A DNA stretch of 64,000 bases, from contig NZ_MVBC01000013.1 of assembly GCF_002007105.1 (NCBI RefSeq), positions 1 through 64,000 of the forward strand, given 5' to 3'. Source of the stretch: Hymenobacter sp. CRA2. Its GTDB lineage: Bacteria; Bacteroidota; Bacteroidia; Cytophagales; Hymenobacteraceae. Both the position numbers and the translations under genes were made by a program. The notes under the pieces were generated by a model, which searched no databases, was not told where the DNA came from, and saw only the letters and a program-made list of their open reading frames with translations. This document shows, piece by piece, positions 8,661-26,147 of the stretch (its first letter is position 1; every line of letters begins with the position of its first letter).

Positions 8661-11600
8661 ATGCGCAAACCATTACCATCGCGCTCCCCGGGCCGCTTTC
8701 CTTCCCTAGCCGCCGGGCTGCTGGCCGGTCTGAGCGTGACGCTGCCGCTGACGCCGGCGCAGGCCCAGATTGTGGCGGCCGGCTCGGGCAGCTACACCAC
8801 CGTCTTTCCGGGCACCGACGTAGCCGGGCGTAATGCCGTGCCGATGGGCACTAGTCCGCTGGTAAGTGGGGCAGCGGCCACCAAGCCGGTGCCCACCAAC
8901 GACTTCTGGTCGGCCAAGCTGCAGAAGAGCCACGTCGGTAACATCTTCAACTACCCCTCGGCCTACCGCACCGACCCGGCCGGCCTGGGGGTGAACCGCA
9001 TCACGCCCAACCAGGCCCCGCTCGACTACCGGCAGCCCAACAGCAACGTGATGGGCGTGCTGGTGGGCGTGCAGAACCTGAATGCCACCGCCGCCACCGT
9101 CTCGAACTTCTCGGACTGGACGGTGACCATGAACTGGCGCAGCGGCTCGAACGATTTCAGCGCCACGCTGGGCATGGGCATGCCCTTCACCTACTTCACC
9201 AAGGCCGCCGCCGACGTGGCCCAGGTGAAAGTGGCCCAGGGCACCGCGACGGTGAACGGCGAAATGCTGCTGGTGCTCAACACCTTCAACAACGCCGACT
9301 TCGTGGTGTACGCCCCGGCCGGCGCCACCTGGACGCTGGGCGCCGCCAATACCTACACCTCCACGCTCGGCGGCAAAACGTACTGGTCGATGGTGCACGT
9401 GCCGGACGTGAATACCTCGGCCGACCTGCTCACGCAGGCGCAGGCGTTCAAGAAGTTTGCCTACGTGTTTCCGGCCAATACCCAGGTGGCTTGGCAGTAC
9501 AACGAAACCTCGGCGGTGCTGACCTCCACGTTTACCGTCACGCCCGACCGGAAAGAAGGCACCGCCAACAACGTGGCGCAGGGGCTGCTGCCGCACCAGT
9601 GGGGCCATTTGGCGGCGGGTTCGGCCCAGCCCCAGGGCGCTACCTATCCCACGGTGCGCGGGGCGCTGAAGCTGCTCGACGGCAATGTGTTTTCGACGGC
9701 CAACACCTTCCGCGGGCTGCTGCCGACTTTGCCCTACCTGGCCAACTACAGCGCCGGCTTCAGCCCGGTGAAGCTGAACACCAAGGTGAAAGGCCTGCAG
9801 AACAGCGGCCTGGCCGAGTGGACCGACTCCTACAACGAGGGGCAGGACATGAACAAGCTGCTGCAAACCGCCCGCATTGCCCACGAAACCGGCAACGTGG
9901 AGGCACGCGACAAGCTGGTGGCCACCATCAAGACGCGGCTGGAAAACTGGCTGACGGCCAGCGCCGGCGAGAAGGCGTTCATCTTCTACTACAACAACAC
10001 CTGGAAAACGATGATCGGCTACCCGGCCGGCCACAACCAGGATTACAAGCTCAACGACCACCACTTCCACTGGGGCTACTTCATTCAGGCGGCCACGCTC
10101 ATCGAGCAGTACCAGCCGGGCTGGGCCGCGCAGTGGAAGCCCATGATCAGCCTGCTCATCCGCGACGCGGCCAACCCCAGCCGCACCGACGCAGACTTTC
10201 CCTTCCTGCGCAGCTTCGATCCCTACGCGGGCCACGCCTGGGCCGACGGCTTCGCCATGACCGGCGACATCAACACCGAGGAGCCGCAGGGCAACAACCA
10301 GGAATCGACGCCGGAGAGCATGCAGTTCAACTCGGCCCTGATCCACTGGGGCGCCATCACGGGCGACAAGGCCATCCGCGACCTGGGCATCTACCTCTAC
10401 ACCACCGAGCAGAGCGCGGCCGAGGAGTACTGGTTTGACACCCAGCGCCGCACCTTCCAGCCGAATTACCCCTACGCCAGCACCGGCCGCATCTGGGGCT
10501 CGGGCTACGACGCGGGCACCTGGTGGACCCAGGACGTGCGCGCCATGTACGGCATTCAGCTCTACCCCATCCACGGCGGCTCGTTTTACCTGGGCCGCGA
10601 CACCACCTACGTGCGCCGGCTCTGGAACGACATGGTGGCCAACACCGGCATCCTGCAGAACGAAGTCAACCCCAACCTCTGGCACGACGTGCTGTGGCAG
10701 TATTTGGCCTTTATCGACCCGGCCCGTGCTATCCGCCTTTATGACAACTACCCCAACCGCGGGCTGAAAACCGGCATTTCCGACGCGCAAACGTACTACT
10801 GGCTGCACGCCATGAACGCCCTGGGTGCCCTCGACGGGACCGTAACGGCCAACTCCCCGCTGGCGGCCGTGTTCCGCAGCCGGAGCGGCCAGAAAACCTA
10901 CGTGGCGCACAATTACGGCAGCACCGCTACCACCGTCACCTTCTCCGACGGCTACGTGCTCAACGTGCCCGCCCGCAAAACCGCCACCAGCCGCGACGTA
11001 ACCGTGAGCGGTACGCTGGCAGCTAATGCGGTGGAAGTCGTCACCGGCGGCAGCGTGACCTTGACGGCCTCGGTTAGCGGCGCGGGCGTGACGGGCGTGG
11101 AATTCTTCGACGGGCCGACTTCGCTGGGCCGCGTCAATGCCGCGCCATTTGTCAAGACGGCCAGCAGTCTGCCGGTGGGTATTCACACCTTCTACGCCAA
11201 GGTGTACGCCGGAACTTCGTTCAGCGTGACCAACCTGGTGAGCGTGCAGGTGGGCAAACAGGCCTCCTTCACCGGCACGCCCCAGGCCATTCCGGGCACC
11301 ATCGAGGCGGGCCGCTACGACACCTACCCCGGCGGCTCGGGCCAGGACATTGCTTACAGCGACGTTTCGGAGGGCAACCAGGCCACCTACGAGCCGGCGC
11401 CCACCCAGGCCTTCCGCCCCGACCAGGGCGTGGACGCCGTGCTGGACCCGGCCGAAGGCGCTACCGTGGGCTGGGTGGACGCGGGCGAGTGGCTGGAGTA
11501 CACGGTGAACGTGGCCCAGGCCGGCACCCACACCCTGAACCTGCGCTACGCCGCCGGCAACGCCGGCGGGGGCGGCCCCTTCTTCCTGAGCGTGGACGGC

Positions 11601-13421
11601 ACCCGCGTCAGCCCCGACCAAACCGTAACGACCACCAGCAACTGGGGCACCTGGGCCACCAAAACCATTACCGGCCTCAGCTTGCCCGCCGGGGAACACG
11701 TGCTGCGCCTGACCTTTACGCAGGGCGGGCTGAACGTCGGCCGCCTGGCCTTCACCTACACCGGCGCCGCCAACACGCCGCCCACCGTCAGCCTGACCTC
11801 GCCGGCCAACAACGCCAGCTTCACGGCCCCGGCCAGCATCACGATTTCGGCCAACGCGGCCGACGCCAACGGCACGGTGAGCAAAGTCGAGTTCTTCCAG
11901 GGCTCGACCAAACTGAGCGAGGATACCAGCAGCCCGTACAGCTTCACGTGGAGCAGCGTGGCCGCCGGTACCTATAGCATCACGGCTCGGGCAACGGATA
12001 ACGGCGGCGCTACGACCACCTCGTCGGCCGTGAGCGTGACGGTGAATCCGGGCGGGCCAACGGCGCAGGCTATTCCCGGCAAGATTGAGGCGGAAAGCTT
12101 CTCGGCCCAACAGGGCACCGATACGGAAGAAACCAGCGACACGGGCGGCGGGCGCAACGTAGACTGGTTTGAAACCGGCGACTGGCTGGATTACTACGTG
12201 AACGTGGCCCAGGCCGGCACTTACACCGTGGGGTTCCGGGTGGCTTCGGCCAACGGCGGCGCCACCTTCCAGCTGCGCAACAGCGGCGGTACGGTGCTGG
12301 GCAGCATCAACATCGGCAATACCGGCAACTGGCAGAACTGGCAGACCATCAGCACCAACGTGACGCTGCCGGCCGGCCCGCAGACCCTGCGCGTGTACGC
12401 CTCGGCTTCCACCGGCTGCAACCTCAACTGGCTCAACTTTGCCGCAGCTACTACTACCAACACGCCTCCGACCGTCAGCCTGACCTCGCCCAGCGCCGGC
12501 GCTTCGTTTACGGCCCCGGCCAGCATCACGATTTCCGCCAACGCGGCCGACGCCAACGGCACGGTCAGCAAGGTGGAATTCTTCCAAGGTTCGACCAAGC
12601 TCGGCGAGGACACCAGCAGTCCTTATTCCTTTACGTGGAGCAATGTGGCGGCTGGCTCGTACTCCATTACAGCCCGGGCTACCGACAACGCCGGGGCCAC
12701 GACGACCAGCAGCGCCGTGAATGTGACGGTGACCAGCAGCCCGAGCAGCGGCTACTGCGCCGTGGTAAGTGACTTCAGCTACGGAGCCGTGAGCAGCGGC
12801 GGCAACGTCACCTTCACCTTCCACCCGCTGGGCGCCACGGCCGGCGGCAGCCTGGCCATCATCTACCTGCGCGAAGGCAGCGCGGGCGGCTACCCCGGCT
12901 ACACCATGACCAAAAACGCGGCCGGCGACTTCACCTTCACCAAGGCCATTGCCACCGGTACCGTGACCAGCATCTACTTCACCTACCAGGTAGGCGCCGG
13001 CGGGCCGGAGCGCAACACGGCCGCTTCGCCCTTCAGCTACACGGTGGGGCAGTCGTGCAACCTGCAGGCCCGCATGGCGGGAGTGACCAGCTCCTCCGGC
13101 CAGGCCAGCGGCAGCGCCCCGGAACGTGCCCAGCGGCCTGGCGCCACCGAAGCAGCTGTAGCCAGCCCGCTGCAAGTGACTCCCAACCCGGCCTATGACC
13201 GCGCTACCATCCAGTTTGCCCTGGCTCCGGCCAGTGCCTATACCCTGGAAGTGCGCGACCTGAGCGGCCGGTTGGTCAGGACCTTCAGCGGCTCCGCGAC
13301 CGAAGCGGCGCGGGTGGTGGCCTTGGAAATGCCGCTGGAAACCCACCCGGCGGGCGTATACGTGCTGCACCTGCGCACGGGCGGCCAAACGCAGACGCAA
13401 CGCCTGGTACTGCTGCGCTGA
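8661..13421 (+). CDS. Secreted endo-beta-1,3-glucanase (GH81) with CBM6, CBM56 and T9SS sorting domain
   Basis: Probably cuts beta-1,3-glucans such as laminarin, curdlan or fungal wall glucan outside the cell. The 1586-residue chain begins with a signal peptide (to about residue 36). The GH81 catalytic domain covers about 45-720 with NDHHFHWGYF (Asp466) and GNNQESTPES (Glu548 and Glu552), the regions holding the catalytic acids. Then come an Ig-like domain (about 775-870), CBM6 (about 876-1035), an Ig-like repeat (1036-1130), a second CBM6 (1136-1260), a near-copy of the Ig-like repeat (1266-1355) and a CBM56-type beta-1,3-glucan-binding module (1361-1465). The T9SS type A sorting domain starts near VTPNPAYDRATIQF and ends QRLVLLR. 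It stands alone with its own terminator. Confidence 0.92.
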   Translation: MRKPLPSRSPGRFPSLAAGLLAGLSVTLPLTPAQAQIVAAGSGSYTTVFPGTDVAGRNAVPMGTSPLVSGAAATKPVPTNDFWSAKLQKSHVGNIFNYPSAYRTDPAGLGVNRITPNQAPLDYRQPNSNVMGVLVGVQNLNATAATVSNFSDWTVTMNWRSGSNDFSATLGMGMPFTYFTKAAADVAQVKVAQGTATVNGEMLLVLNTFNNADFVVYAPAGATWTLGAANTYTSTLGGKTYWSMVHVPDVNTSADLLTQAQAFKKFAYVFPANTQVAWQYNETSAVLTSTFTVTPDRKEGTANNVAQGLLPHQWGHLAAGSAQPQGATYPTVRGALKLLDGNVFSTANTFRGLLPTLPYLANYSAGFSPVKLNTKVKGLQNSGLAEWTDSYNEGQDMNKLLQTARIAHETGNVEARDKLVATIKTRLENWLTASAGEKAFIFYYNNTWKTMIGYPAGHNQDYKLNDHHFHWGYFIQAATLIEQYQPGWAAQWKPMISLLIRDAANPSRTDADFPFLRSFDPYAGHAWADGFAMTGDINTEEPQGNNQESTPESMQFNSALIHWGAITGDKAIRDLGIYLYTTEQSAAEEYWFDTQRRTFQPNYPYASTGRIWGSGYDAGTWWTQDVRAMYGIQLYPIHGGSFYLGRDTTYVRRLWNDMVANTGILQNEVNPNLWHDVLWQYLAFIDPARAIRLYDNYPNRGLKTGISDAQTYYWLHAMNALGALDGTVTANSPLAAVFRSRSGQKTYVAHNYGSTATTVTFSDGYVLNVPARKTATSRDVTVSGTLAANAVEVVTGGSVTLTASVSGAGVTGVEFFDGPTSLGRVNAAPFVKTASSLPVGIHTFYAKVYAGTSFSVTNLVSVQVGKQASFTGTPQAIPGTIEAGRYDTYPGGSGQDIAYSDVSEGNQATYEPAPTQAFRPDQGVDAVLDPAEGATVGWVDAGEWLEYTVNVAQAGTHTLNLRYAAGNAGGGGPFFLSVDGTRVSPDQTVTTTSNWGTWATKTITGLSLPAGEHVLRLTFTQGGLNVGRLAFTYTGAANTPPTVSLTSPANNASFTAPASITISANAADANGTVSKVEFFQGSTKLSEDTSSPYSFTWSSVAAGTYSITARATDNGGATTTSSAVSVTVNPGGPTAQAIPGKIEAESFSAQQGTDTEETSDTGGGRNVDWFETGDWLDYYVNVAQAGTYTVGFRVASANGGATFQLRNSGGTVLGSINIGNTGNWQNWQTISTNVTLPAGPQTLRVYASASTGCNLNWLNFAAATTTNTPPTVSLTSPSAGASFTAPASITISANAADANGTVSKVEFFQGSTKLGEDTSSPYSFTWSNVAAGSYSITARATDNAGATTTSSAVNVTVTSSPSSGYCAVVSDFSYGAVSSGGNVTFTFHPLGATAGGSLAIIYLREGSAGGYPGYTMTKNAAGDFTFTKAIATGTVTSIYFTYQVGAGGPERNTAASPFSYTVGQSCNLQARMAGVTSSSGQASGSAPERAQRPGATEAAVASPLQVTPNPAYDRATIQFALAPASAYTLEVRDLSGRLVRTFSGSATEAARVVALEMPLETHPAGVYVLHLRTGGQTQTQRLVLLR

Positions 13422-15127: not shown

Positions 15128-16318
15128 ATGTCCATTGTAGGCCCGTCGTTGCCCCACGCGGCGGCGCGAATTGCCTTTGTAAGTTCTTGTCCAGCAGTAT
15201 GGGGCGGTAGCGAGGAGCTGTGGGCCGCTACGGCTTTGTGGCTGCGGCGTGCGGGGCACACTGTTCGTACCTTTAAAACCACCGTCGACCCCAAGCACCA
15301 CAAAGTAGCGGAACTGCTGGCTGCTGGCTGTTCCGTGGACGACATCGATCCAGCACTGACCCTGCGCCAGCGGATGCTCAACCGCGTGCTGCCCTACCAG
15401 CGCCAGCATACGCGCCGCAGCTGCGGCGAACGGGTGCTGACGCGCGGCTTACGGGCCTTCGAGCCGCACTTGGTAGTAGTTTCGCAGGGCTCTAACTACG
15501 ACGGCATTGCCTTCGCGGAGGTGTGCCGCCAGCAGGGCCATGCCTATGTGCTGCTCTCGCAGAAAGCGGTGGACTTTTTTCTTCCGTTGTACTTCGAGCG
15601 GACATTGGCGCAGCGCGCGTACGCCACCGCCCGGCGCTGCTACTTCGTGGCGCGGCACAACATGGTGCTGACCGAGCAGCAGCTGGCAATGCGGCTGCCC
15701 GCGGCCGAGGTAGTAACCAACCCCTTTAACGTACCCTTTGAGGCCCTGCAGCCCTGGCCCGCGGCCGAGGCGGAGCAGGTACTGCACCTAGCCTGCGTGG
15801 CCCGCTTCGAAGTACTGGACAAAGGCCAGGACCTCTTGCTGCAAGTGCTCAGCCAGCCCCACTGGCGCGCGCGCGCCCTTCGCGTTACGCTGTTCGGTGC
15901 CGGTCACGACGAGCAGGCCCTGCGCGAAATGATTGACTTGCTGGACCTGCACGAGACGGTGCGCATCGGCGGGCACGTGCGCGACATCAGTGCTGTTTGG
16001 CGAAGCTACCACGCCCTGGTGCTGCCCTCGCGCAACGAAGGACTGCCCCTGGCTTTGGTCGAAGCCATGCTCTCAGGCCGGCCGGCCATTGCCGTCAGCG
16101 CCGGCGGCATGGCGGAGTTGCTGACCGACAACGTAACCGGCTTTCTGGCCGCCGCGCCCACGCCGCAGGCCCTGGAGGAAGCCCTGGAACGGGCCTGGAA
16201 TCAGCGCGCCCGCTGGCCCGAGCTGGGCCGGGAGGCTGCGCGGCGGGCCCGGGCCGCCATACCCGCCGACGCCGCCGCCCGGTTTGGGGAGCGGCTGCTG
16301 GCCGAAATAGCCGGCTAA
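15128..16318 (+). CDS. Glycosyltransferase family 4
   Basis: Probably a retaining GT-B enzyme adding a sugar to a lipid-linked glycan at the inner face of the cytoplasmic membrane. The 396-residue protein has an N-terminal acceptor half with FVSSCPAVWGGSEELW (about residues 18-33). The C-terminal donor half includes CVARFEVLDKGQDLLLQVL, GAGHDEQALREM, IGGHVRDI and the E-x7-E motif RNEGLPLALVEAMLSGRP, then NVTGFLA. It is the first gene of the locus; the GT2 follows after 32 bases. Donor and linkage cannot be told from sequence. Confidence 0.88.
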   Translation: MSIVGPSLPHAAARIAFVSSCPAVWGGSEELWAATALWLRRAGHTVRTFKTTVDPKHHKVAELLAAGCSVDDIDPALTLRQRMLNRVLPYQRQHTRRSCGERVLTRGLRAFEPHLVVVSQGSNYDGIAFAEVCRQQGHAYVLLSQKAVDFFLPLYFERTLAQRAYATARRCYFVARHNMVLTEQQLAMRLPAAEVVTNPFNVPFEALQPWPAAEAEQVLHLACVARFEVLDKGQDLLLQVLSQPHWRARALRVTLFGAGHDEQALREMIDLLDLHETVRIGGHVRDISAVWRSYHALVLPSRNEGLPLALVEAMLSGRPAIAVSAGGMAELLTDNVTGFLAAAPTPQALEEALERAWNQRARWPELGREAARRARAAIPADAAARFGERLLAEIAG

Positions 16319-16350: not shown

Positions 16351-17310
16351 TTGACTCCACCGTTAGTTTCCGTTATTATCCCTACTTACAACCGCGGGGC
16401 CTGGGTAGCCGCAGCCATTCGCAGTGCGCTGGCCCAATCCTACCCGTGCACCCAGATAATTGTCATCGACGACGGCTCGACGGACGACACGCGGACGCAG
16501 GTGGCAGCCTTCGAGGGAGTGGAATACTACTATCAAGCCAATGCCGGGCAAGCCGCCGCCCGCAACGCGGGGTTGCGCCACTGCATCGGAACGTATGTGG
16601 CCTCCCTGGACTCCGACGATACCTGGAGTCCGGATTTTCTGACGGCGGGCGTGGCCGCGATGCAGAAGCACGCCCTGGATTTCGTGTTTCTAAACTGGAC
16701 GGCTTCCAACGGACACAACGGCCTGGAGAGCTTTCTGCATTTGCCCGAACGGCGGCAACGTTACTGCGCCCAGTCGGACGCAGAGTGGTGGCTGCTGGAA
16801 GCAACGCAAACCCGGCAGCTGTTCATTGAAACCTGCCCCGCCCCGTCCTCGTCGCTGCTCCTGCGCCGGGCCGACCTGCCGCCAAGTGCCTGGAATGAGT
16901 CCATGCGCATTGCCGACGATTGGTGTCTGATGCTGGACTTGGTGCTGTCCCGCCCGCGCCGGGGCGCGTTTACCACGGTGGCGCACTGGCAAAAAACAGT
17001 GCACGGCGGTAATATCTACGACGGACGCGACCCGCTGGCAGTGATTCAGGAACTGGGATTCCACGATGAAAAGCAGTTGGTGACGCGCTTTCAGCACCAG
17101 CTGAAGGCCCCCGAGCGGGCCGTGTTTCGACAGCGGCTGGCCCGCAACAACTTCGAGTTTGCCTACCACAATTGGAAAGTCCGCAACCCCACACGCACGG
17201 TGGTACGGCACTTGACGTTAGCATTTGCGCTGGCGCCACTCATCATTTTTCGGCATTCGCTCAAGGGCTTGCTGGGCCACTTAAAGAAGCAGCAGTGGCT
17301 TACCCGTTAG
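16351..17310 (+). CDS. Glycosyltransferase family 2
   Basis: GT-A fold enzyme, likely inverting, using a nucleotide-sugar donor. Residues 1-100 show the family core: VSVIIPTYNRG, IIVIDDGSTDDT, ANAGQAAARNAGLRH and the metal-binding DSDD in VASLDSDDTW. The frame is open far upstream, but that part overlaps the preceding gene. The first sensible start is TTG at 16351, giving MTPPLVSVIIPTY and 319 residues; no ATG lies between the preceding stop and the fold, so a non-ATG start is needed. The C-terminal region near residue 290 is hydrophobic (LTLAFALAPLIIF), perhaps a membrane contact. It converges with the UbiA gene. Confidence 0.87.
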   Translation: MTPPLVSVIIPTYNRGAWVAAAIRSALAQSYPCTQIIVIDDGSTDDTRTQVAAFEGVEYYYQANAGQAAARNAGLRHCIGTYVASLDSDDTWSPDFLTAGVAAMQKHALDFVFLNWTASNGHNGLESFLHLPERRQRYCAQSDAEWWLLEATQTRQLFIETCPAPSSSLLLRRADLPPSAWNESMRIADDWCLMLDLVLSRPRRGAFTTVAHWQKTVHGGNIYDGRDPLAVIQELGFHDEKQLVTRFQHQLKAPERAVFRQRLARNNFEFAYHNWKVRNPTRTVVRHLTLAFALAPLIIFRHSLKGLLGHLKKQQWLTR

Positions 17311-17330: not shown

Positions 17331-18389
17331 TTACCGAGCGGAAAGTTTGTGAGCCAGCACCGAGGCCACCTGCGCCAAGCTGTGGGCGGTGTGCCAGAGG
17401 TGAGGGCCGAAGAGCAGCGCGTGCAGACCGAGCACGGCAAAGTCGGCGGAGTGCCGGGCGCCCAGCAACACCAGAAACGCCAGCGGGTAAAACACTTCGT
17501 AGTATTCGTTAAGCAGCGGCCGTTGCCGGGGCTGCCACTCCACCACCGCCAGCCGCACATTCCACACCCGCTGGCGAAACCACTCCAACGCCGCGTACCC
17601 CACCAGCAACCACCCCGGCAGCAGGGCCTGGCTCAGCCACAGCAACGCCCCAAAGCTCAGTACCTCAACGGGAAAGGCCAGGCCCTGCCCTACCATTCGG
17701 GCAACGGCCACCCCGCGGCGCTGCACGAAGGTGGCTACGCCGGCGTGAGCGTCGGCCGTAGCGTCGCTGAGCTGGTGCCCGATGATGTTGCGCACGCCGC
17801 TGGTCAGCGACCAGGCGCCCAAGGCCAGCAGCCAGCCTGCGGGCAGCGGGCGAGCTGCCCAGGCAGCGATGAGCGTGGCGGTAAGCAGTTGCGGAAAGAA
17901 ATGCGCCCCGGCGGCATCGGCCAGCAGGCCGGGCAGGCCCCGGGTTTTCAAGCGCACCGGCGGCACCGAGTACAGCGTGTAAACCACCCACGCCCCCAGG
18001 TAAAGCAGGCCCGCAGCGGGGCTCAGCTGCCAGAAGTACCAGCCGAAGCCCAGGCCGGGCCCGAGGCAGCCCGCAAAAGCCGCCGCGGCGAAAGTGCCCG
18101 ACCGTCCGGTCCAGCCGTTGGGCTTGCCAGCCGCCGCATCGTCGCGGCGGTCGGTCCAGTCGTTGATAAGGCTGACGTAGGCCGCACCCACCGCCAGGGC
18201 GGCCAGCAGCAGCAGCAACCGGGGCAGCAGCGCCCAGCCGGAGGCACCCACTACCCAGGCCGTGGCGTAGGCCGTGCCCAGCAGGGGCGAAAATTTGAAA
18301 GCCCACCACTCATTAGCGCGGGCCATGCGGACAAGGTTTGGGGCCATGGTAGCAGGAACTGCTTGATAGTTTCTGGTTCCCATTAGCAA
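17331..18389 (-). CDS. UbiA-family prenyltransferase
   Basis: Integral membrane enzyme that transfers a polyprenyl chain, or a phosphoribosyl group in the DPPR-synthase branch, to an acceptor. The 352-residue sequence has about eight membrane segments. The first Asp-rich motif is LINDWTDRRDDAAAGKPNG and the second is DATADAHAG. The YSVPPVRLKTRG loop is typical of the superfamily. It lies on the opposite strand between the GT2 and the ABC permease, converging with the first and diverging from the second with an 86-base gap. It may supply a lipid carrier or prenyl group to the locus. A later start at MAPNLVRM is also possible. Confidence 0.85.
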   Translation of the reverse strand: MLMGTRNYQAVPATMAPNLVRMARANEWWAFKFSPLLGTAYATAWVVGASGWALLPRLLLLLAALAVGAAYVSLINDWTDRRDDAAAGKPNGWTGRSGTFAAAAFAGCLGPGLGFGWYFWQLSPAAGLLYLGAWVVYTLYSVPPVRLKTRGLPGLLADAAGAHFFPQLLTATLIAAWAARPLPAGWLLALGAWSLTSGVRNIIGHQLSDATADAHAGVATFVQRRGVAVARMVGQGLAFPVEVLSFGALLWLSQALLPGWLLVGYAALEWFRQRVWNVRLAVVEWQPRQRPLLNEYYEVFYPLAFLVLLGARHSADFAVLGLHALLFGPHLWHTAHSLAQVASVLAHKLSAR

Positions 18390-18475: not shown

Positions 18476-19306
18476 ATGAAAGAAACAATTTACTCATCTA
18501 GGGCCAGCTTGCACGCGCCCCGCGCCTTTCTGCGGCAGGTGCGCGAGGATGCCCGGGTGGTGTACCACATCAGCGGGCAGTTGTTCGTGCGCAACCTCAA
18601 GGTGCAAGTGCGGCAAAGCTTGCTCGGCTACGCCTGGATGCTACTGCCTCCGCTGGCGGTGGCCCTGGTGTGGGTTTTGCTAGGGCGGGCCCGGGTGCTC
18701 AACATCGAATCGGGTCCCGTGCCCTACCCGGTGTTTGTGCTGGCCGGGGTGTTCCTGTGGCAAGGGTTCGTGGAGGCGCTGAACTGCCCGCTGCAGCAGC
18801 TGTCGGCATCCAAGGCCACCCTGGCCAAGGTACGGGTGCCGCACGAGGCCTTCGTGGCCGCGGGCATGGGCGTGGTGGGCTTCAACTGCCTGGTGCGGCT
18901 GCTGGTGCTGCTGGGCGCCATGCTGTGGGCAGGTGTGCCCTTCACCAGCGCACTGGCCCTGGTGCCGCTGGGGCTGGCCGCCCTGCTGGGCCTGGGCCTG
19001 GCCTTGGGCTGGTTGGTGGCCCTGCTCGGCTTGCTCTACGCCGACATTCCTAACGCCCTGGCCGTGGGCCTGAACCTGTGGTTTCTCGTCACCCCGGTGG
19101 TGTACGTCCTGCCGGCTCAGTACGGGCGCCTGCTCAGCCTCAACCCCGTAACGCCCCTGCTCACGACCACGCGCAGCTGGCTGCTAGCCGGTACAGTAGC
19201 GCCGGGGCCGGGCTTCTGGCTGGTGGCGGCACTGACCGGCCTTGCCTTGGGCACCAACTGGTTGGCCTACCGCCTGGCCCAACCCCACCTCATTGCCCGC
19301 TTCTGA
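18476..19306 (+). CDS. ABC-2 type permease for surface glycan export
   Basis: Membrane half of an ABC exporter of the Wzm/TagG kind, which moves lipid-linked polysaccharide or teichoic-acid-like polymers across the cytoplasmic membrane. The 276-residue protein has an N-terminal cytosolic segment containing VRNLKVQVRQSLLGYAWMLL, the amphipathic entry typical of this family, then six predicted membrane segments. Its stop overlaps the next start by one base (TGATG), and the partner ATPase is two genes downstream, with the acyltransferase-P450 fusion inserted between the two halves of the transporter. Confidence 0.88.
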   Translation: MKETIYSSRASLHAPRAFLRQVREDARVVYHISGQLFVRNLKVQVRQSLLGYAWMLLPPLAVALVWVLLGRARVLNIESGPVPYPVFVLAGVFLWQGFVEALNCPLQQLSASKATLAKVRVPHEAFVAAGMGVVGFNCLVRLLVLLGAMLWAGVPFTSALALVPLGLAALLGLGLALGWLVALLGLLYADIPNALAVGLNLWFLVTPVVYVLPAQYGRLLSLNPVTPLLTTTRSWLLAGTVAPGPGFWLVAALTGLALGTNWLAYRLAQPHLIARF

Positions 19307-21552
19307 TGCTGCGCTCCTTGCCCCGGGCCCTGGTGGCTCGCTACGCTCCTTCCGTACTCAAGCGCCTGGCCCGTGGGGCGTGGCGGCGGCTTCGGCGCCC
19401 CGCCCCGCCGCGGCACCTATTGGTGTTTGGGGGGCGTACCGAGTACTGGCCGGGCGCCGGGCGTACCCTTTTTGCACGCGAGCCGGTCTTCCGGGCGGCC
19501 ATTCTGGAGTGTGAGCGGATAACGACGCAGGTGCTGGGCGGTCCTTCGCTGCTGCGGCAGTTCGAGGGCGAGCAGGACCCGGGCTTTTTCAAGGACGAGC
19601 GGCGCCTGATGCACACCAGCGCCGTGATGCAGCTAGCCCTGGTGGACCTGTGGCGGGCCCACGGCGTGGAGCCCGAAGCCGTGCTGGGCGTCAGCCTGGG
19701 CGAAATAGCGGCCGTGTACGCCGCCGGGGGACTGAGCCTGACCGACGCGCTGCGGGTGAGTGCCTGCTACTACTCCATCAGCGAAGTAGAGGAGTTTGAC
19801 TACGCGGCGCTGGTGGTCGGGGCCGGTTTTGAGGACTGTGCCCGGCTGATAGCCAGCGGGCCAGCCGACATGTTCATCGTGCTGGTGCTGGACGCGGCTA
19901 GCTGCTTCGTGTTCTGCGCCCGGGCCCACGTAGCGGCGGCGCAGGCCCACCTGGCGGCGCACGGCACGAGCTGCCTGCCGCTGCGAACCGCGCCCATGCT
20001 TCCCTACCACTGCCTGGTGCCGTTGGATCGGCACCTCGACCGCCTGCGGCAGCCGTTGCGGGGTATGCAGCCCTTGCCCACTACCCGGCCGGCTTACCTG
20101 AGCACGGTGGGCCGGCTGGTTCCTTCCGGCACCGTACTGGGCGCCGACTACTGGCTGACCCTGATTCGGTACCCGGTAAATGTGCACGGCGCCCTGGCTG
20201 CCGCGCTGGCCGATGGTTATCAGCTGCTGACGCCCGTCGGCACGCATCCCTTTCCCTTCTTCCAGGGCCCGCAGGCGCCGAACCGCTTGGCTCAGGCCCG
20301 CCTGCTGGGAGGCCTGCACGAGGGCGGCGACGAACACGCGCTGTTTGAAAGCATCCGGCAGCAGTTGCAGCAGGCACGGGTGAGCATGCACCCTGCTGTG
20401 CCCACTACCGCCCTGGAATTTGCCCGGCAGTTTCGGTTCCAGAACCTGGACGTGGTGGCGGATCCTTACCCGGCTTTTGCCTTTCTACGCCGGCAAGGAG
20501 CCCTGCACCAGCTGCCCGGCGAAGAAGGCTGGCTGGTAACCGACTCGGATATGGTGGCTGACATCCTGCGCCAGCCCCTCGTGTTTTCGAACGGTACCGT
20601 ATCTGAATTTGACACGGAGCTATTAGGGGCCGACCCGCCCATTCATACCACCAACCGGGCCATTTTTCAGCCCTTTTTCTCCCCCCGGGAGCTGTCCACG
20701 CTCAGCGACTACACCGCCAGGATGGTGCAGGAGCTAGGCGCTGACCTATACCGCCGGCCCTGCTTCGAATTTGTAACGGAGTTTGCCGTCCCACTTGCCC
20801 AGGCAGTAAGTGGGCGCTTATTGGGTCTCACGGCGGCCGAGTTGGAAAAGTTACGGGGCAGCTTGCCCGGCCATATCTATGGGCTGGACTACTTTGCCGA
20901 GCTGACGCGCTACTTCGAGGACTATTTCAACCACCGGCAAGCCCCAGCAGAACCCCCAGTGATGCTTGACAACCTGCTGGCTCTCGTGCGCAGCGGCTCC
21001 ATCAGCCAGGCAGCGGCCGTGAGTTTGGCCAAAACCATGTGGCTGGCCGGTCTCGCCACCAGCAGCATCCTGATGACCAGCGCGGCCCATTACTTGCTCA
21101 CCCACCCGACTACGGCTGCCCAGCTGCAAGCCCAGCCGGCGCTGGTGGATGCTTTTGTGGAAGAAATTCTGCGGCTGCAGCCGCCCCTCAGCAGCATCTC
21201 CCGCGTTACGACCGAGCCCGTAACCCTGGGCGGGGTGGCGCTACCCGCAGGCACCACGCTGGTGCTGAGCATCGGCGCGGTGAACCGCGACCCGGCCCGC
21301 TTTCCTAGCCCCGACGAGCTGGACCTAAGCCGCCGCCCCACCCGCCACCACGCCTTTGGCGGGGGAATTCATGCCTGCATGGGCGCGCACCTGGCCCGGC
21401 AGGAAGCGCGGCTGATGGTACAATGGCTGGTCGCGCAAGGGGCGGCGCTACAGCTCACTACTCCTTTCGCCTTGCCCCACTACTACCCGCATCCGGTGTT
21501 TCGGGCGCACGCTCACCTCTACCTGACTTTGCAGCCCCCGCTACCCGCCTAA
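19306..21552 (+). CDS. Acyltransferase-cytochrome P450 fusion protein
   Basis: A single 748-residue frame joining two enzymes rarely fused. Residues about 38-330 resemble a malonyl-CoA/ACP acyltransferase: GVSLGEIAAVYAAGGL carries the nucleophile Ser130 (the usual His before it is Val), and LPYHC gives a candidate catalytic His235; the usual N-terminal GQGSQ is replaced by FGGRTEYW. Residues about 368-748 are a P450 with ExxR (Glu620-Arg623) and the haem loop FGGGIHACMGAHLAR (Cys691). The I-helix reads AGLATS, lacking the usual acid of the acid-alcohol pair. There is no stop or frameshift at the joint near residue 350. One-base overlaps link it to permease and ATPase genes. No carrier protein or ketosynthase is visible in the window. 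The substrate is unknown. Confidence 0.88.
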   Translation: MLRSLPRALVARYAPSVLKRLARGAWRRLRRPAPPRHLLVFGGRTEYWPGAGRTLFAREPVFRAAILECERITTQVLGGPSLLRQFEGEQDPGFFKDERRLMHTSAVMQLALVDLWRAHGVEPEAVLGVSLGEIAAVYAAGGLSLTDALRVSACYYSISEVEEFDYAALVVGAGFEDCARLIASGPADMFIVLVLDAASCFVFCARAHVAAAQAHLAAHGTSCLPLRTAPMLPYHCLVPLDRHLDRLRQPLRGMQPLPTTRPAYLSTVGRLVPSGTVLGADYWLTLIRYPVNVHGALAAALADGYQLLTPVGTHPFPFFQGPQAPNRLAQARLLGGLHEGGDEHALFESIRQQLQQARVSMHPAVPTTALEFARQFRFQNLDVVADPYPAFAFLRRQGALHQLPGEEGWLVTDSDMVADILRQPLVFSNGTVSEFDTELLGADPPIHTTNRAIFQPFFSPRELSTLSDYTARMVQELGADLYRRPCFEFVTEFAVPLAQAVSGRLLGLTAAELEKLRGSLPGHIYGLDYFAELTRYFEDYFNHRQAPAEPPVMLDNLLALVRSGSISQAAAVSLAKTMWLAGLATSSILMTSAAHYLLTHPTTAAQLQAQPALVDAFVEEILRLQPPLSSISRVTTEPVTLGGVALPAGTTLVLSIGAVNRDPARFPSPDELDLSRRPTRHHAFGGGIHACMGAHLARQEARLMVQWLVAQGAALQLTTPFALPHYYPHPVFRAHAHLYLTLQPPLPA

Positions 21553-22793
21553 TGTCCGCCTCTCCTCCTTTGGTTACAGTGCGTAATCTTTCCAAGAAGT
21601 TCTGCACGCACTTGCGCTCCTCGCTCTGGTACGGCCTGCGCGACATTGTCGCCGAGGCGTTGCCGGGCCGGCTGCGGCAGCCCCACCGCCTGCGGCGGGC
21701 CGAGTTCTGGAGCTTGCAGGATGTCTCGTTTGAGCTGCGCCGGGGCGAGGCGCTGGCCATTATTGGCGACAACGGCGCGGGCAAAAGCACCCTGCTGAAG
21801 CTACTCAACGGCCTGATTAAGCCCGATGCGGGCACCATCCGCATCCTGGGCCGGGTTGGGGCCCTCATTGAGCTGGGCGTGGGACTTGATCCGCTGCTGA
21901 GCGGGCGCGAAAACATTTTCCTGCGCGCTTCTCTGCTGGGCGTTTCGCAGGGGCAGGTGGCGCCGCTGCTGCCAGCCATCATTGACTTCACCGGCCTGGG
22001 CAGCGCCATTGAGATGCCGGTGCAGTTCTACAGTTCGGGCATGGTGTCGCGCTTGGCCTACGCCGTAGCGGCGCATTTGCACCCCGACGTGCTGCTCGTA
22101 GACGAGGTGCTGGCCGTGGGCGACTTCGACTTTCAGCGCAAGTGTATTCACCACATGATGAGCTACCTTGCCGGCGGGGGCTCCATCATCCTCGTTTCGC
22201 ACCAGCCCCACCATATTCAATCGGTGTGCCAGCGCGGCCTGGTGCTGGAAAAGGGGCAACTGGCGTTCAGCGGCACGGCCGTCGAGGCACTCGATTACTA
22301 CTTTGGGCAGCAACTAGCTTTGGGCAGCCCCGCCGATGCGGCACCTGCGGCCGAGGCGCTCAACGAACTAAAGCCCGTGGTGATTGAGGAAGTGCGGATG
22401 ACGGGTGCCGGCACGGGCCTGTGCCCCGGGGCAGCAGCTACCATTCAGCTCACTTACCATGCCCTGCGGTCGGTTCAGCAGGTGAGTTGGGGCTTTTATT
22501 TATACACCAACGACGGGCAGGTGTGTATCGGCGGGGCCTTCCACCCAACGCCCACCCGTATCAGCGAAGGGCAGCACGTGCTCCGCTGCCAGCTGGCGCG
22601 CCTGCCGCTCACAGCCGGCAATTACCTGCTGCGAGCGGCCATCTTCGACTGTAATTCCTTGCAGCCTTTGGCTCTTTTTGGCTGGGAGAATGCGCCTGGG
22701 CGGTTGCAGGTGGAAGCCGCCACCAGCCTGGAAAAAAACAGCCACAAATTGCTTAACCAGCTTACCATCTTGGACGTCGAATGGAACCACTAG
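21552..22793 (+). CDS. Wzt-like ABC transporter ATPase with C-terminal glycan-binding domain
   Basis: ATP-driven partner of the permease at 18476. The N-terminal ATPase domain has Walker A GDNGAGKST, the signature region YSSGMVSRLAYAVA and Walker B VLLVDEVLAVGD followed by the switch His in VSHQ. After about residue 265 comes a beta-rich domain (VQQVSWGFYLYTNDGQVC through LLRAAIFDCN) like the Wzt C-terminal domain that recognises a modified glycan end. Total length is 413 residues. ATG at 21552 overlaps the preceding stop (TAATG), and the 3' end overlaps the next gene by 13 bases. A recognition domain suggests the exported chain bears a terminal modification, perhaps made by the neighbours. 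Confidence 0.92.
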   Translation: MSASPPLVTVRNLSKKFCTHLRSSLWYGLRDIVAEALPGRLRQPHRLRRAEFWSLQDVSFELRRGEALAIIGDNGAGKSTLLKLLNGLIKPDAGTIRILGRVGALIELGVGLDPLLSGRENIFLRASLLGVSQGQVAPLLPAIIDFTGLGSAIEMPVQFYSSGMVSRLAYAVAAHLHPDVLLVDEVLAVGDFDFQRKCIHHMMSYLAGGGSIILVSHQPHHIQSVCQRGLVLEKGQLAFSGTAVEALDYYFGQQLALGSPADAAPAAEALNELKPVVIEEVRMTGAGTGLCPGAAATIQLTYHALRSVQQVSWGFYLYTNDGQVCIGGAFHPTPTRISEGQHVLRCQLARLPLTAGNYLLRAAIFDCNSLQPLALFGWENAPGRLQVEAATSLEKNSHKLLNQLTILDVEWNH

Positions 22794-23860
22794 TTTCCAC
22801 CCCCACGGGTATTACCCAGAACTCCCGCCTGAACAAGGCCATCAGCCGGGGCCTGACTTACCTGACGCAGCACCAGTTCCCCAACGGCGAGTTCTGCTGC
22901 TACATTGCCGCCGATGAGCCCATGCAGGGCTGGTGCCTGACCGAAAGCACGGTGTTTGCGACGATGGTGGTGGCCTCGTGCCTGCTGCCGCTGGCTGACC
23001 GGCCCGAAACGGAAGCCATGCTGGCCAAGGCCAGCGGCTGGCTGCAGTACCAGATGCACCACGGCGGGGTGTGGCCGGTGTTTTCCGACCGCCACCCCTG
23101 GCATGCGCTGGTGCCCTACGACACCGACAGCATGGTTTACGCCTCTGCTTTTATGCGGGCCCGCGGCATCGATTGCCCTAGCCCGACCAATCTGCCCTTG
23201 CTACTGGCCAATCGTACTCGTAAGGGCTTGTTCTACACCTGGTTTCTGCTGCGTCTGAACTGGCAAACCAATCCCACGCACTGGCGCATCACAGCCCGTG
23301 AGGTGCTGCATCCCATCAACAGCTTCTTTTTTTGGCGGGCCAACGAGTGCACCCGGGCCGATGTCGACATGGGCATTAACACCAATGTTCTGTATTATTT
23401 GGGCGACGTGGAGGCCACTCAGCCCATCATTGCCGAACTGCTGCGGGTGATTGCCGAAAAGCGGGAAGACGACTGCGACAAGTGGTACCGCAACCCGTTC
23501 ACCATCTACTACCTCATGTCGCGGGTGTACCGGCAGGGCGTAACGAAGCTGGAGCCCGCCCGACCAGCCATTCTGGAGCGCATCTTGGCCACGGCCCGCC
23601 CCGACGGGCAATTGGGCAAGTCCATCTTCGACACCGCGCTGGCTGTTACCACCTTACTTAATCTGGGCTTCGCCAGCCCAATCCTGGACCAAGCCATTGA
23701 ATTCATCCTGCAAGCCCAGGCTGCGTCCGGCGAGTGGCCCCGTTGGCTGTTCTACTACGGCGGGCCGAAGCTGCTGCAGGGCTGGGGCTCCGAGGAACTG
23801 ACCACCGGCTTCTGCCTGGAGGCGCTGGCCCGTTACCAAGCCGAGCATCCCCATGCTTAG
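22781..23860 (+). CDS. Alpha-toroid protein resembling terpene cyclases
   Basis: The 359-residue protein is mostly helical with prenyltransferase/squalene-oxidase-type repeats. QW-like motifs occur as QYQMHHGGVWPVF and QAQAASGEWPRW. PYDTDSMVY holds Asp114-x-Asp116-Ser117 at the place where class II cyclases carry DxDD, so a protonating Asp could be present although the fourth acid is Ser. It is about half the size of squalene-hopene cyclase, one toroid domain rather than two, and has no signal peptide. It overlaps the ATPase gene by 13 bases and ends three bases before the next possible start, so it belongs to the operon. It might cyclise a prenyl chain or be a sugar-modifying toroid enzyme; the family alone does not decide. 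Confidence 0.7.
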   Translation: MEPLVSTPTGITQNSRLNKAISRGLTYLTQHQFPNGEFCCYIAADEPMQGWCLTESTVFATMVVASCLLPLADRPETEAMLAKASGWLQYQMHHGGVWPVFSDRHPWHALVPYDTDSMVYASAFMRARGIDCPSPTNLPLLLANRTRKGLFYTWFLLRLNWQTNPTHWRITAREVLHPINSFFFWRANECTRADVDMGINTNVLYYLGDVEATQPIIAELLRVIAEKREDDCDKWYRNPFTIYYLMSRVYRQGVTKLEPARPAILERILATARPDGQLGKSIFDTALAVTTLLNLGFASPILDQAIEFILQAQAASGEWPRWLFYYGGPKLLQGWGSEELTTGFCLEALARYQAEHPHA

Positions 23861-23904
23861 CCCATGAAACCCGTTCCCTACGAGGCTTCCCGCCGCTACC
23901 CGGA

Positions 23905-24963
23905 GTGGACTTGCTGCGCTTCTTGGCTAGTCTGGCAGTGGTACTACTGCACTTCACTTACAGCATGCCGCTGATAGCCCGCATTAGCCCATCGTTTCCG
24001 GCTCTGGGCGGGGTGTTCCGCTACGGCTACTTGGCGGTCGACTTGTTTTTCATGATCAGCGGGTTTGTGGTGCTGCGCTCGGCCCGCCACAAAAGCTTGT
24101 CGCAGTTTGTGGTGGCCCGCGTGGTGCGCCTCTATCCAGTGTTCTGGCTGAGTTGCTTGCTCACCTTTGCGGGCCTTTATTTCAGCGGCACGGGCGGGCC
24201 GGGAATGGGTCGGCAGTTGGTGTTCAACCTCACCATGCTACACGAGTTTTTTGGCTACAAGCCCCTGAATGGCGTGTACTGGTCGCTGACCTACGAGCTG
24301 ACCTTTTGCTTTCTGGTGGGACTCATCATTGGCTGCCGGCTGTGGCAATGGCTGTTTGGGCTAGTGCTGGGCTGGCTGGCGTACACGGCGGTGGCCGGTC
24401 CGCTGCCGGCCGGCCACCTGTTCAGCTACTTGTTCATTCCCAAGCACAGCGCCTATTTCATTGCGGGCATGCTGTTCTACCTGCTGCAAAGCCGCACAGA
24501 AGCAGCCTGGAAGCTGCACGCAGCGCTGCTTTTCGCCTTCGGGCTGGCCTTGCGCAGCGACCGGGCCGAGCGGCAGCTGGCGCAGGAGTTCTTCCACGAA
24601 GCGCCGCTCAGCGCGGTCGTGTCGGGGGTAGTAATTGCCGGGTGCTTCCTGGTGTTTTACGCCATCGTGGCGGGCCGCCTGCGCCCTCACCCGGTTTGGG
24701 CCGCGTTAGGGCTGCTGACCTACCCGCTTTACCTGCTGCACGGCCTGGGGGCCATTCCGCTCAACTTGCTCAGTGGCAAGGTCGATAAATACTTGCTACT
24801 GGCGGGTACGCTGGCTTTGGTGCTGCTGGTGGCCGCCCTGGCGCAACGGCTGGTGGAGCGTCCCCTGAGCCTGGCCCTGGGCCGCTGGCTCAACCACTGG
24901 CTGGCGCAGCAGCGGCCGCAGTTCGTCCACTCCGAAGCCGTAGCAGCGGCGCCCCACGCCTAG
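23905..24963 (+). CDS. Membrane acyltransferase 3 (OafA-like), 5' end apparently frameshifted
   Basis: O-acyltransferases of this family acetylate or otherwise acylate sugars of surface glycans. The frame has about ten membrane segments, the conserved LHFTYSM histidine region, FFMISGFVVLRSARHKSL and the ARVVRLYPVFW motif. The expected N-terminus (MKPVPYEASRRYP, ATG at 23864) lies in a different frame and ends soon after, while the remainder starts GVDLLRFLASL. One missing base near 23898-23903 would join them into the usual YPGVDLLRF opening. As written, only a GTG at 23905 could start the long frame, giving 352 residues. It is either a fresh frameshift mutation, a sequence error, or a shortened but working enzyme. 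Confidence 0.75.
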   Translation: MDLLRFLASLAVVLLHFTYSMPLIARISPSFPALGGVFRYGYLAVDLFFMISGFVVLRSARHKSLSQFVVARVVRLYPVFWLSCLLTFAGLYFSGTGGPGMGRQLVFNLTMLHEFFGYKPLNGVYWSLTYELTFCFLVGLIIGCRLWQWLFGLVLGWLAYTAVAGPLPAGHLFSYLFIPKHSAYFIAGMLFYLLQSRTEAAWKLHAALLFAFGLALRSDRAERQLAQEFFHEAPLSAVVSGVVIAGCFLVFYAIVAGRLRPHPVWAALGLLTYPLYLLHGLGAIPLNLLSGKVDKYLLLAGTLALVLLVAALAQRLVERPLSLALGRWLNHWLAQQRPQFVHSEAVAAAPHA

Positions 24964-25010
24964 CTGCTGCCGTAGCCACCTGTTTCTTTCCTTTCCAAGC
25001 CGCCTTGCAC

Positions 25011-26147
25011 ATGCCTACGCATTTAGAAAAAATCAACGTCCTGCGCGGCATTGCCATTCTGCTGGTGTTCGGCTACCATGCCCTGCTCATTCTCTTCGGG
25101 CAGTATGAAATCTACGATTTCAGCCCGTCGTGGGTGTGGATTGATTTTGCGCGCTACGTGCCCGGCCGCATCTTGCTGGGGATGACGCCGCCGGGTATGG
25201 GCGCACAGGGCGTCACGTTGTTCCTTGTCATCTCAGGCTTTTTGATTCACTTAGGCTATTTGCGCAGCGGCGTCAGCTTCCGCTGGGGCGAGTTTTTCAA
25301 CAAACGGTTCTGGCGCATCTATCCCCCGTATCTGGTGGCGCTGCTTGTGTTCGGCCTCAGCCTGGGGACGGGCGGCTGGCTCGGCCTGCTCACCCACCTC
25401 ACGCTCACGCACAATCTCACCGACCGCACCATCTTCACGATTAATCCTTCTTTTTGGTCGCTGGCCCTGGAAATGCAGCTTTACCTGCTGTACCCGCTGT
25501 TGCTGTTGCTGCGCCACCGGCTGGGCATGGCCGGAGCCACGCTGGCTATAGGTGGACTAGCAATACTGGCTATGGGCTTGGGAATAGCCTTGCAGACGCG
25601 GAGCGAGGCACTCTGGCTGTCGGCCCTCAACCTCTGGATAGTATGGGCACTAGGCGCCTATCTCGGCGAGAAGTTCTTTTACCAGCAACGCATTTATACG
25701 GGCAGCGGCTACTACCTGCTGATGGCTTACCTGCTGCTCACACTCTCGCGGCTCACCATTGTGTACGTGCTGTTTGGCCGCATCCTGTTCAGCGTATTTT
25801 TCATTTACGTTATCGACTGGTATCTGCACCGCCCGGCCAAAGCCGGCGCTGCTTTTTCGGGCGCTTTGGCCCGGTTCACGGCGCTGGTGGGCGTATATAG
25901 CTATAGTATCTACCTATTTCACCAGCCTTCCTTGCAGCAGTTAATTGAGTTTTTCAGCCACGGGCAACAGAATAAGTTGGTGCTGACCGGGGCCGTGGCA
26001 CTCTCCTTTGGGGTGGTGCTCGGCTTATCGTACTGCACCTACCGCTGGTTGGAGCTACCCTCCATACATTGGGGCAAGCAGCTTTATGCACGGTTCCGTC
26101 CTACAGGGAAAGCTGCTTTGGTGCCGGCCCGGCAGCCAGGGGCCTAA
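25011..26147 (+). CDS. Membrane acyltransferase 3 (OafA-like)
   Basis: Second acyltransferase of the locus, 378 residues, intact. The start MPTHLEKINVLRGIAILLVFGYHALL has the conserved LRGIAIL and the active His. LVISGFLIHLGY and NKRFWRIYPPYLVALL are the family's SGF and R-x-x-RIYP motifs. About ten membrane segments follow. ATG at 25011 is preferred to the TTG two codons earlier. It is the last gene of the run and begins 47 bases after its paralogue. The two differ in length and sequence, so they may place acyl groups on different sugars or positions. Confidence 0.88.
   Translation: MPTHLEKINVLRGIAILLVFGYHALLILFGQYEIYDFSPSWVWIDFARYVPGRILLGMTPPGMGAQGVTLFLVISGFLIHLGYLRSGVSFRWGEFFNKRFWRIYPPYLVALLVFGLSLGTGGWLGLLTHLTLTHNLTDRTIFTINPSFWSLALEMQLYLLYPLLLLLRHRLGMAGATLAIGGLAILAMGLGIALQTRSEALWLSALNLWIVWALGAYLGEKFFYQQRIYTGSGYYLLMAYLLLTLSRLTIVYVLFGRILFSVFFIYVIDWYLHRPAKAGAAFSGALARFTALVGVYSYSIYLFHQPSLQQLIEFFSHGQQNKLVLTGAVALSFGVVLGLSYCTYRWLELPSIHWGKQLYARFRPTGKAALVPARQPGA

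What the first reader, a model, noticed from the sequence alone, without database searches (positions are those of the whole stretch)
18476..26147. Glycan-export operon with an acyltransferase-P450 fusion and a terpene-cyclase-like toroid
Seen: a Wzm-like permease, an AT-P450 fusion, a Wzt-like ATPase with C-terminal recognition domain and a toroid protein overlap by 1, 1 and 13 nt, then two O-acyltransferases; GT4, GT2 and UbiA genes lie just before. Known: Wzm/Wzt export lipid-linked glycans, P450s oxidise, AT domains load acyl groups from CoA, toroid proteins cyclise prenyl chains. Inference: the locus makes and exports a glycan or glycolipid bearing an unusual oxidised, acylated or cyclised lipid group, a combination I do not know as a described pathway.
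Basis: partly seen in the sequence, partly recalled or inferred. Interest (0 to 1): 0.88.

Follow-up and report, generated by a model that had tools for sequence, protein, structure and literature searches.

The report
Terpenoid-glycolipid operon with acyltransferase-P450 fusion
A bacterium of the Hymenobacter family carries a conserved gene set, not found described in the papers searched, that probably builds a sugar-bearing lipid with a ring-folded terpene part and pumps it across the membrane, using among others one protein that joins two unrelated chemistries.

Summary
In detail: Wzm-like permease, AT-P450 fusion, Wzt-like ATPase and toroid overlap by 1, 1 and 13 nt, with GT4, GT2 and UbiA just upstream and two membrane acyltransferases downstream. 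The set is conserved. In 24 toroid loci of a genome-collection scan, UbiA lies within 10 kb in 24, GT4 in 23, GT2 in 22. Eight family genomes show only GT4, UbiA and toroid of the set, so that triad is the core; exporter, GT2, fusion and acyltransferases are add-ons. The exporter is Wzm/Wzt in 11 of 24 loci and a ~600-aa one-piece ABC protein in 12. The fusion occurs in 8 of 200 family genomes, each with a toroid gene, and again in the cluster of a genome outside the class (29% identity). The toroid groups with class II terpene cyclases: profile E 4e-13 to drimenol synthase, fold matches to drimenol synthase and single-domain MstE, D-x-D motif in 40 of 40. Best reading: UbiA prenylates an unknown acceptor, the toroid cyclises the chain, GTs glycosylate, an ABC exporter moves the product. 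All chemistry is inferred; no description turned up in the papers searched.

The parts
15128..16318 (+). GT4 glycosyltransferase; part of the minimal core
   Evidence: PF13692 94 bits; in 23 of 24 toroid loci (the miss, L045, ends at a contig edge) and 18 of 18 intact-toroid regions
16351..17310 (+). GT2 glycosyltransferase (start TTG 16351 is my choice)
   Evidence: PF00535 115 bits (translated from 16372); in 22 of 24 toroid loci, one of them cut by a contig end; no match in the eight minimal loci
17331..18389 (-). UbiA-family intramembrane prenyltransferase; core
   Evidence: PF01040 40.3 bits, cut-off 34.2; both Asp motifs in the window protein and 21 relatives; in 33 further-checked relatives NDxxDxxxD 33 of 33 and HQ[LF]xDxxxD 30 of 33 (window not in that set)
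18476..19306 (+). Wzm-like ABC permease
   Evidence: weak KpsM match E 2e-6; precedes Wzt, directly or with the fusion between, in the Wzm/Wzt loci
19306..21552 (+). AT-P450 fusion, 748 aa: acyltransferase domain about residues 35-360, cytochrome P450 domain about 385-745
21552..22793 (+). Wzt-like ABC ATPase with C-terminal recognition domain
   Evidence: PF00005 and PF14524 above cut-off
22781..23860 (+). single-toroid class II terpene cyclase homologue; acid motif D114-T-D116-S117; core
23734..24963 (+). membrane O-acyltransferase 1 (ORF as listed; true start uncertain)
   Evidence: PF01757 70.5 bits; homologues in L032 and L037
25005..26147 (+). membrane O-acyltransferase 2
   Evidence: PF01757 83 bits; homologues in L031, L032, L035, L036

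Best explanation
A tailoring-rich version of a conserved, mainly Bacteroidota module that makes and exports a cyclised prenyl (terpenoid) glycolipid. Proposed order: UbiA transfers a prenyl chain from a prenyl diphosphate to an unknown acceptor at the inner membrane; the single-domain toroid protonates the chain through its D-x-D acid and cyclises it, as MstE does with a prenylated head group; GT4 and GT2 add sugars; the AT-P450 fusion attaches and/or oxidises a neutral acyl or terpenoid group; the ABC transporter moves the glycolipid across the inner membrane; the two membrane acyltransferases esterify it. Shown: gene content, conservation, co-occurrence, homology, catalytic motifs. Inferred: every reaction, the order, the substrates and the export.
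For: Conserved order in six relatives. GT4-UbiA-toroid alone of the set in 8 genomes. Co-occurrence in the same 200 genomes: UbiA and toroid together in 18 (23 and 20 carriers, Fisher p 3e-19); fusion with toroid 8 of 8 (p 2e-9) (relatedness not corrected, one toroid carrier has only a fragment). Profile of 30 toroids: drimenol synthase E 4e-13, squalene-hopene cyclase 6e-12, AstC 2e-7, MstE 0.004; the best 28 of 33 PDB matches are named terpene or prenyl cyclases or synthases, then pectate lyase at 0.21. Fold: drimenol synthase 5.8e-8, MstE 8e-6 to 2e-5, identity 13-18%. Window D116 aligns with drimenol synthase D333, whose change to Asn abolished product (PMC9128629, passages). Fusion beside the same core in a genome outside the class. 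Exporter type changes while the core stays.
Against: The window toroid has DTDS, not DxDD, and the stretch holding the motif aligns only weakly by itself (3.6 bits, 14.4; the C-terminal half carries the score). Five genomes have UbiA with Wzt but no toroid; in four a methyltransferase gene lies beside Wzt (Pfam run on three), so UbiA can serve without cyclisation. G117 has toroid and GT4 but no UbiA of this subgroup at E 1e-30. No acceptor-making gene was recognised. The eight minimal loci show neither exporter type within about 9 kb (other exporters not excluded). The toroid model is poor at residues 136-194. Wzt_C domains fit a polysaccharide as well.
Confidence: 0.6

Rival explanations
1. 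An ABC-dependent O-antigen-like polysaccharide locus in which UbiA and toroid only modify the lipid carrier or the chain end, the toroid or fusion standing in for the methyltransferase that caps chains in other Wzm/Wzt systems.
For: Wzt_C domain; five toroid-less genomes have UbiA with Wzt, four with a methyltransferase gene beside Wzt, the kind of enzyme that caps chains in such systems (recalled; the abstract start of PMC9445017 in the listing says O-antigen secretion often needs a modified terminus).
Against: Minimal loci show no Wzm/Wzt; a one-piece ABC protein takes the place of Wzm/Wzt in 12 of 24 loci; only two GTs are conserved.
Confidence: 0.2
2. UbiA is a decaprenyl-phosphate phosphoribosyltransferase type enzyme that supplies pentofuranose donors to the exported glycan (three-component system of PMC11127046).
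For: Such systems occur with Wzm/Wzt (PMC11127046, passages); five Pedobacter loci carry a second UbiA near the toroid cluster, in L065 with oxidoreductase, HAD and PMT_2 genes.
Against: The second UbiA of L065 matches the phosphoribosyltransferase structure 8j8j at 1e-9, but the profile of seven toroid-linked UbiA proteins does not up to E 10, matching only chlorophyll synthase at 5.5e-5 (the seven are all from the window's family); it explains neither toroid nor fusion.
Confidence: 0.05
3. The P450 half is not an oxygenase but a helper of a glycosyltransferase, like the P450-derived activators of macrolide glycosyltransferases.
For: Best NCBIfam match is TIGR04515, 118 bits; the residue aligned with PikC's I-helix acid is not acidic in 9 of 9 inspected.
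Against: 118 bits is far below the cut-off of 343; the haem cysteine is present in 9 of 9, while activators lack it (recalled); GTs here are GT4 and GT2, not the macrolide type (type recalled).
Confidence: 0.1
4. The toroid is a glycan-active (alpha/alpha) barrel enzyme (lyase, hydrolase or aldolase) rather than a terpene cyclase.
For: Pec_lyase matched weakly by 9 of 30 members and slightly better than SQHop_cyclase_C in the window protein, both below cut-off; GH105 and AprG appear lower in the fold list.
Against: SQHop_cyclase_C matched by 18 of 30 and above cut-off in L136 (27.3 against 26.1); terpene cyclases fill fold ranks 1-36 (rank 15, 6ij1, is named a prenylcyclase) and sequence ranks 1-28; D-x-D invariant in 40 of 40.
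Confidence: 0.07

Closest known systems
MstE, merosterolic acid synthase of Scytonema, acting on a prenylated dihydroxybenzoate
   Same: single toroid domain of about 350 aa, class II enzyme that works on a prenylated head group; fold match, weak profile match
   Different: 13-15% identity in the fold alignment; aromatic acceptor there; here GTs and an exporter, no aromatic-acid gene seen
Drimenol synthase AsDMS (HAD-terpene cyclase beta fusion) of marine bacteria
   Same: best sequence and fold match; catalytic Asp aligned
   Different: fused to a HAD phosphatase and acts on farnesyl diphosphate (PMC9128629, passages); here no HAD domain
Wzm/Wzt O-antigen exporters
   Same: permease plus ATPase with Wzt_C domain
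   Different: no polymerase recognised; terpene-type enzymes interleaved; exporter optional across loci
Three-component pentofuranose systems (PMC11127046, passages)
   Same: UbiA-family gene beside Wzm/Wzt and GTs
   Different: UbiA here is not of the phosphoribosyltransferase type
ebo operon of algal plastids and Bacteroidota (PMC5133447, passages)
   Same: small uncharacterised operon with an orphan UbiA, known from Bacteroidota
   Different: its other families, as named in the abstract passage, are not these

Membership tests
Class II terpene cyclase, beta domain | alpha-toroid fold of the family | tested here: met
   model pLDDT 71.8, pTM 0.79; fold ranks 1-36 terpene cyclases, TM to query mostly 0.4-0.6
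Class II terpene cyclase, beta domain | catalytic D-x-D(D/T) acid motif | tested here: met
   D-x-D in 40 of 40, fourth position D, S, N or T; window DTDS
Class II terpene cyclase, beta domain | sequence homology | tested here: met
   E 4e-13 with 30-member profile; window protein alone below Pfam cut-off
Class II terpene cyclase, beta domain | protonation-initiated cyclisation | not testable with these tools
   needs enzyme assay
UbiA superfamily | PF01040 and two Asp-rich motifs | tested here: met
   PF01040 above cut-off; window has both motifs; relatives: first motif 33 of 33, second as HQ[LF]xDxxxD 30 of 33, two more as HQYxDxxxD, one not found by the pattern
Decaprenyl-phosphate phosphoribosyltransferase (UbiA subgroup) | similarity to 8j8j | tested here: not met
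   no match up to E 10; positive control, second UbiA of L065, 1e-9
Wzm/Wzt exporter | ATPase with Wzt_C domain | tested here: met
Wzm/Wzt exporter | ABC-2 type permease | tested here: inconclusive
   no Pfam match, weak KpsM match below cut-off
Cytochrome P450 | haem cysteine loop and ExxR | tested here: met
   C691, E620, R623 in 8 of 8 and in L136
Cytochrome P450 monooxygenase, classical | I-helix acid-alcohol pair | tested here: not met
   alcohol T585 in 9 of 9; acid absent in 9 of 9; that the pair is typical is recalled
PKS/FabD acyltransferase | GxSxG serine and catalytic histidine | tested here: met
   S130 and H235 in 8 of 8 and L136; role of H235 by analogy, the pairwise alignments do not place it on the PKS histidine exactly
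PKS/FabD extender-unit acyltransferase | carboxylate-binding Arg | tested here: not met
   PKS Arg aligns with Y155; no Arg there in 9 of 9; Arg role recalled
P450-derived glycosyltransferase activator TIGR04515 | score above family cut-off | tested here: not met
   117.8 against 343
Meroterpenoid pathway | UbiA plus terpene cyclase acting on one substrate | tested here: inconclusive
   genes present and linked; shared substrate not testable
Meroterpenoid pathway | gene for the non-terpene acceptor | tested here: inconclusive
   none recognised among genes scanned; many neighbours were not scanned

The most novel reading that the evidence does not exclude
Bacteroidota make a class of surface glycolipids with a polycyclic terpenoid lipid part, built by UbiA plus a stand-alone class II cyclase and pumped out by interchangeable ABC exporters; in some, a self-loading AT-P450 holds an acyl chain on its AT serine, or passes it on, while its own P450 domain, lacking the usual I-helix acid, oxidises it before transfer.
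Probability: 0.25. Interest if true: 0.88.

Novelty: new variant of a known kind. Interest (0 to 1): 0.72.

Why it matters
If true, a terpene-cyclase pathway and a surface-glycan export pathway meet in one operon, giving envelope lipids that I found no report of in several Bacteroidota genera. It would add a stand-alone family to class II cyclases, where PMC9128629 (passages) notes a single beta-domain enzyme as a recent single case, and a two-domain enzyme for which the phrase searches returned no paper. It also gives a clear genetic handle: minimal, full and toroid-less versions of the locus occur in related genomes, so comparing their lipids is a direct test.

Tried and rejected
UbiA as phosphoribosyltransferase: rejected. 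Fusion as a random insertion or mis-joined ORFs: rejected, full length in 8 of 200 family genomes and with the core in a genome outside the class. It is rare elsewhere: in the order sample 4 of 390 genomes at E 1e-60, all of the family; in the phylum sample 4 of 395 genomes at E 1e-40, two full-length (G000, G615) and two with P450-only matches. Plasmid records: 1300 of 72,556 match, none covering 80% of the query; the ten listed lie over the P450 part. Phage families for fusion and toroid: no match at E 0.001. Glycan-active toroid: see rivals. Order-wide toroid search: 32 of 390 genomes at E 0.001; 14 of these have strong matches (E below 1e-80), the other 18 only weak partial ones (E 1e-13 to 4e-5) in longer frames, which I did not follow.

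Papers: the searches. Of the papers only listings (titles, abstract starts) were seen, plus passages of four: PMC9128629, PMC11127046, PMC12365925, PMC5133447. No paper describing the set or the fusion turned up; the library lacks most subscription papers, so absence is weak evidence.

Toroid count limits: one search set aside six toroid sequences identical over their last 250 residues to another, and did not hold those of L034/L045, L037/L055 (D-x-D present), L136 (present) or L051 (not inspected).

Full report
OBSERVATION. Domain calls hold for GT4, GT2, UbiA, AT-P450, Wzt and both acyltransferases; the permease and the window toroid are weak in Pfam and NCBIfam.

CONSERVATION. The AT-P450 fusion is full length in 8 of 200 genomes of the family (the 100 of 200 in that call's tally are mostly partial P450 or AT matches). 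Around six of the other seven, GT2, UbiA, Wzm, fusion, Wzt and toroid lie in the window's order (GT2 cut by the contig end in L034), GT4 in five (L034 stops before it), and one or both acyltransferases in five. In the seventh, G117, the fusion stands apart (L033) with RecJ- and M61-peptidase-type neighbours, while a toroid with GT4 but no UbiA lies on another contig (L123).

A WIDER CORE. A scan of the GTDB genome collection with the toroid gave 24 loci in Hymenobacter and a Hymenobacteraceae MAG, Fibrella, Fibrivirga, Chitinophaga, Pedobacter, Paracnuella and one Sphingomonas (the search patterns came from seven Hymenobacter-family proteins, so distant members are missed, and the window's own genome may be left out). 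UbiA is within 10 kb in 24 of 24, GT4 in 23, GT2 in 22 (one cut by a contig end), the fusion in 7. Exporters: Wzm/Wzt in 11, a one-piece ABC protein of about 600 aa in 12, neither in L046; Pfam was run on two of the 12: ABC_tran above cut-off in both, ABC_membrane just above cut-off in one and below it in the other. Of 20 regions fetched later, 18 hold an intact toroid (four are the same places as loci): GT4 in 18, UbiA in 17; eight show only GT4, UbiA and toroid of the reference set within about 9 kb. So the triad is the core, arranged GT4 forward, UbiA reverse, toroid forward in these eight; in the window GT2 sits between the first two and Wzm-fusion-Wzt between the last two. L112, L113, L115 and L124-L127 have the same order without the fusion.

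CO-OCCURRENCE. In the same 200 genomes: toroid 20 (one, G168, only a fragment), UbiA of this subgroup 23 at E 1e-30, both 18; fusion 8, all with toroid, 7 with UbiA. The p-values ignore relatedness. Independent support: G615, in the same phylum but outside the class, has toroid (DVDD), a weak sulfotransferase-like gene, fusion, GT4, GT2 and UbiA in a row on one strand, its fusion 29% identical to the window's by BLAST; no ABC exporter of either type is next to it, an ABC ATPase gene lies about 1.5 kb upstream of the toroid.

TOROID. The seven-member profile matches drimenol synthase at 1.8e-7; with 30 members, 4.2e-13, then squalene-hopene cyclase 6e-12, AstC 2e-7 and, weakly, MstE 0.004; the first pectate lyase is at 0.21. 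The model (pLDDT 71.8; residues 136-194 poor) finds drimenol synthases first and MstE among ranks 16-22. D114 and D116 fall on D331 and D333 of drimenol synthase, the latter essential there (PMC9128629, passages); the stretch holding the motif scores only 3.6 bits alone (14.4). D-x-D is invariant in 40 of 40; the fourth residue is D, S, N or T, and drimenol synthase has T there. A PYDxDS form occurs in the window, L115, Sphingomonas, two Chitinophaga and as the second of two tandem toroids in four distinct loci of the order (L042, L043, L124, L125). [quoted passage not shown]

UBIA. Both Asp motifs are kept. The seven-member family profile is not of the phosphoribosyltransferase type; its only relative found in the PDB is chlorophyll synthase at 5.5e-5. 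Acceptor and chain length are unknown.

FUSION. AT: serine of GxSxGE and histidine of PYH kept in 9 of 9 inspected; the Arg that binds the malonyl carboxylate in PKS ATs (role recalled) is Y, C, G, L or S, so I infer a neutral acyl donor. P450: haem cysteine, ExxR and I-helix Thr kept, acid of the I-helix pair absent in 9 of 9; the P450 domain best matches PikC by sequence and CYP109A2 by fold, with acyl-ACP-binding P450BioI also high. I infer haem binding with unusual oxygen activation or a non-oxygenase reaction. The fusion of L051 was not inspected.

AGAINST. Five genomes have UbiA with Wzt (Wzm called in four) but no toroid; in four a methyltransferase-type gene lies beside Wzt (Pfam on three of the four). 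So the toroid is replaceable and the UbiA product may be exported uncyclised. Export itself is inferred and neither exporter type is near the minimal loci. A polysaccharide product is not excluded.

VERDICT. Real, conserved and, in the papers I could search, undescribed. All parts belong to known families; the combination and the AT-P450 architecture are what appears new. Chemistry is inferred.

Noticed in passing
23856-23920: First membrane acyltransferase has no in-frame ATG at the expected start; an ATG at 23864 opens a different frame that reads like the start of the L032 homologue, so the gene may be frameshifted near its start or use another start codon.
   Followed up: partly
L130 (G166) and L131 (G168): Decayed toroid remnants: in G166 a second, broken copy beside a Wzm piece and both acyltransferases; in G168 only an end fragment.
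   Followed up: no
L143-L147: UbiA with Wzt but no toroid; a methyltransferase-type gene next to Wzt in four of five.
   Followed up: partly
L056, L057, L058, L062, L065: Pedobacter loci carry a second UbiA close to the toroid cluster; the one of L065 is of phosphoribosyltransferase type and lies by GMC-oxidoreductase, HAD and PMT_2 genes, resembling a pentofuranose donor set.
   Followed up: partly
L038:9265-10326: G136 has a stand-alone AT-domain protein 33% identical to the fusion's AT half, in an unrelated-looking neighbourhood.
   Followed up: no
L044: A Sphingomonas immobilis contig carries toroid, UbiA, Wzm, Wzt and GT4 of this otherwise Bacteroidota system, suggesting horizontal transfer or a contaminant contig.
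   Followed up: no
32956-35670: 904-aa protein that appears to hold two D-alanine-D-alanine-ligase-like halves in tandem, followed by a PASTA-like protein at 35771 (both read from the translation only, names recalled).
   Followed up: no
8661-13421: 1586-aa secreted-looking protein with repeated modules; looks like a beta-glucanase with binding modules (read from the translation only, name recalled).
   Followed up: no
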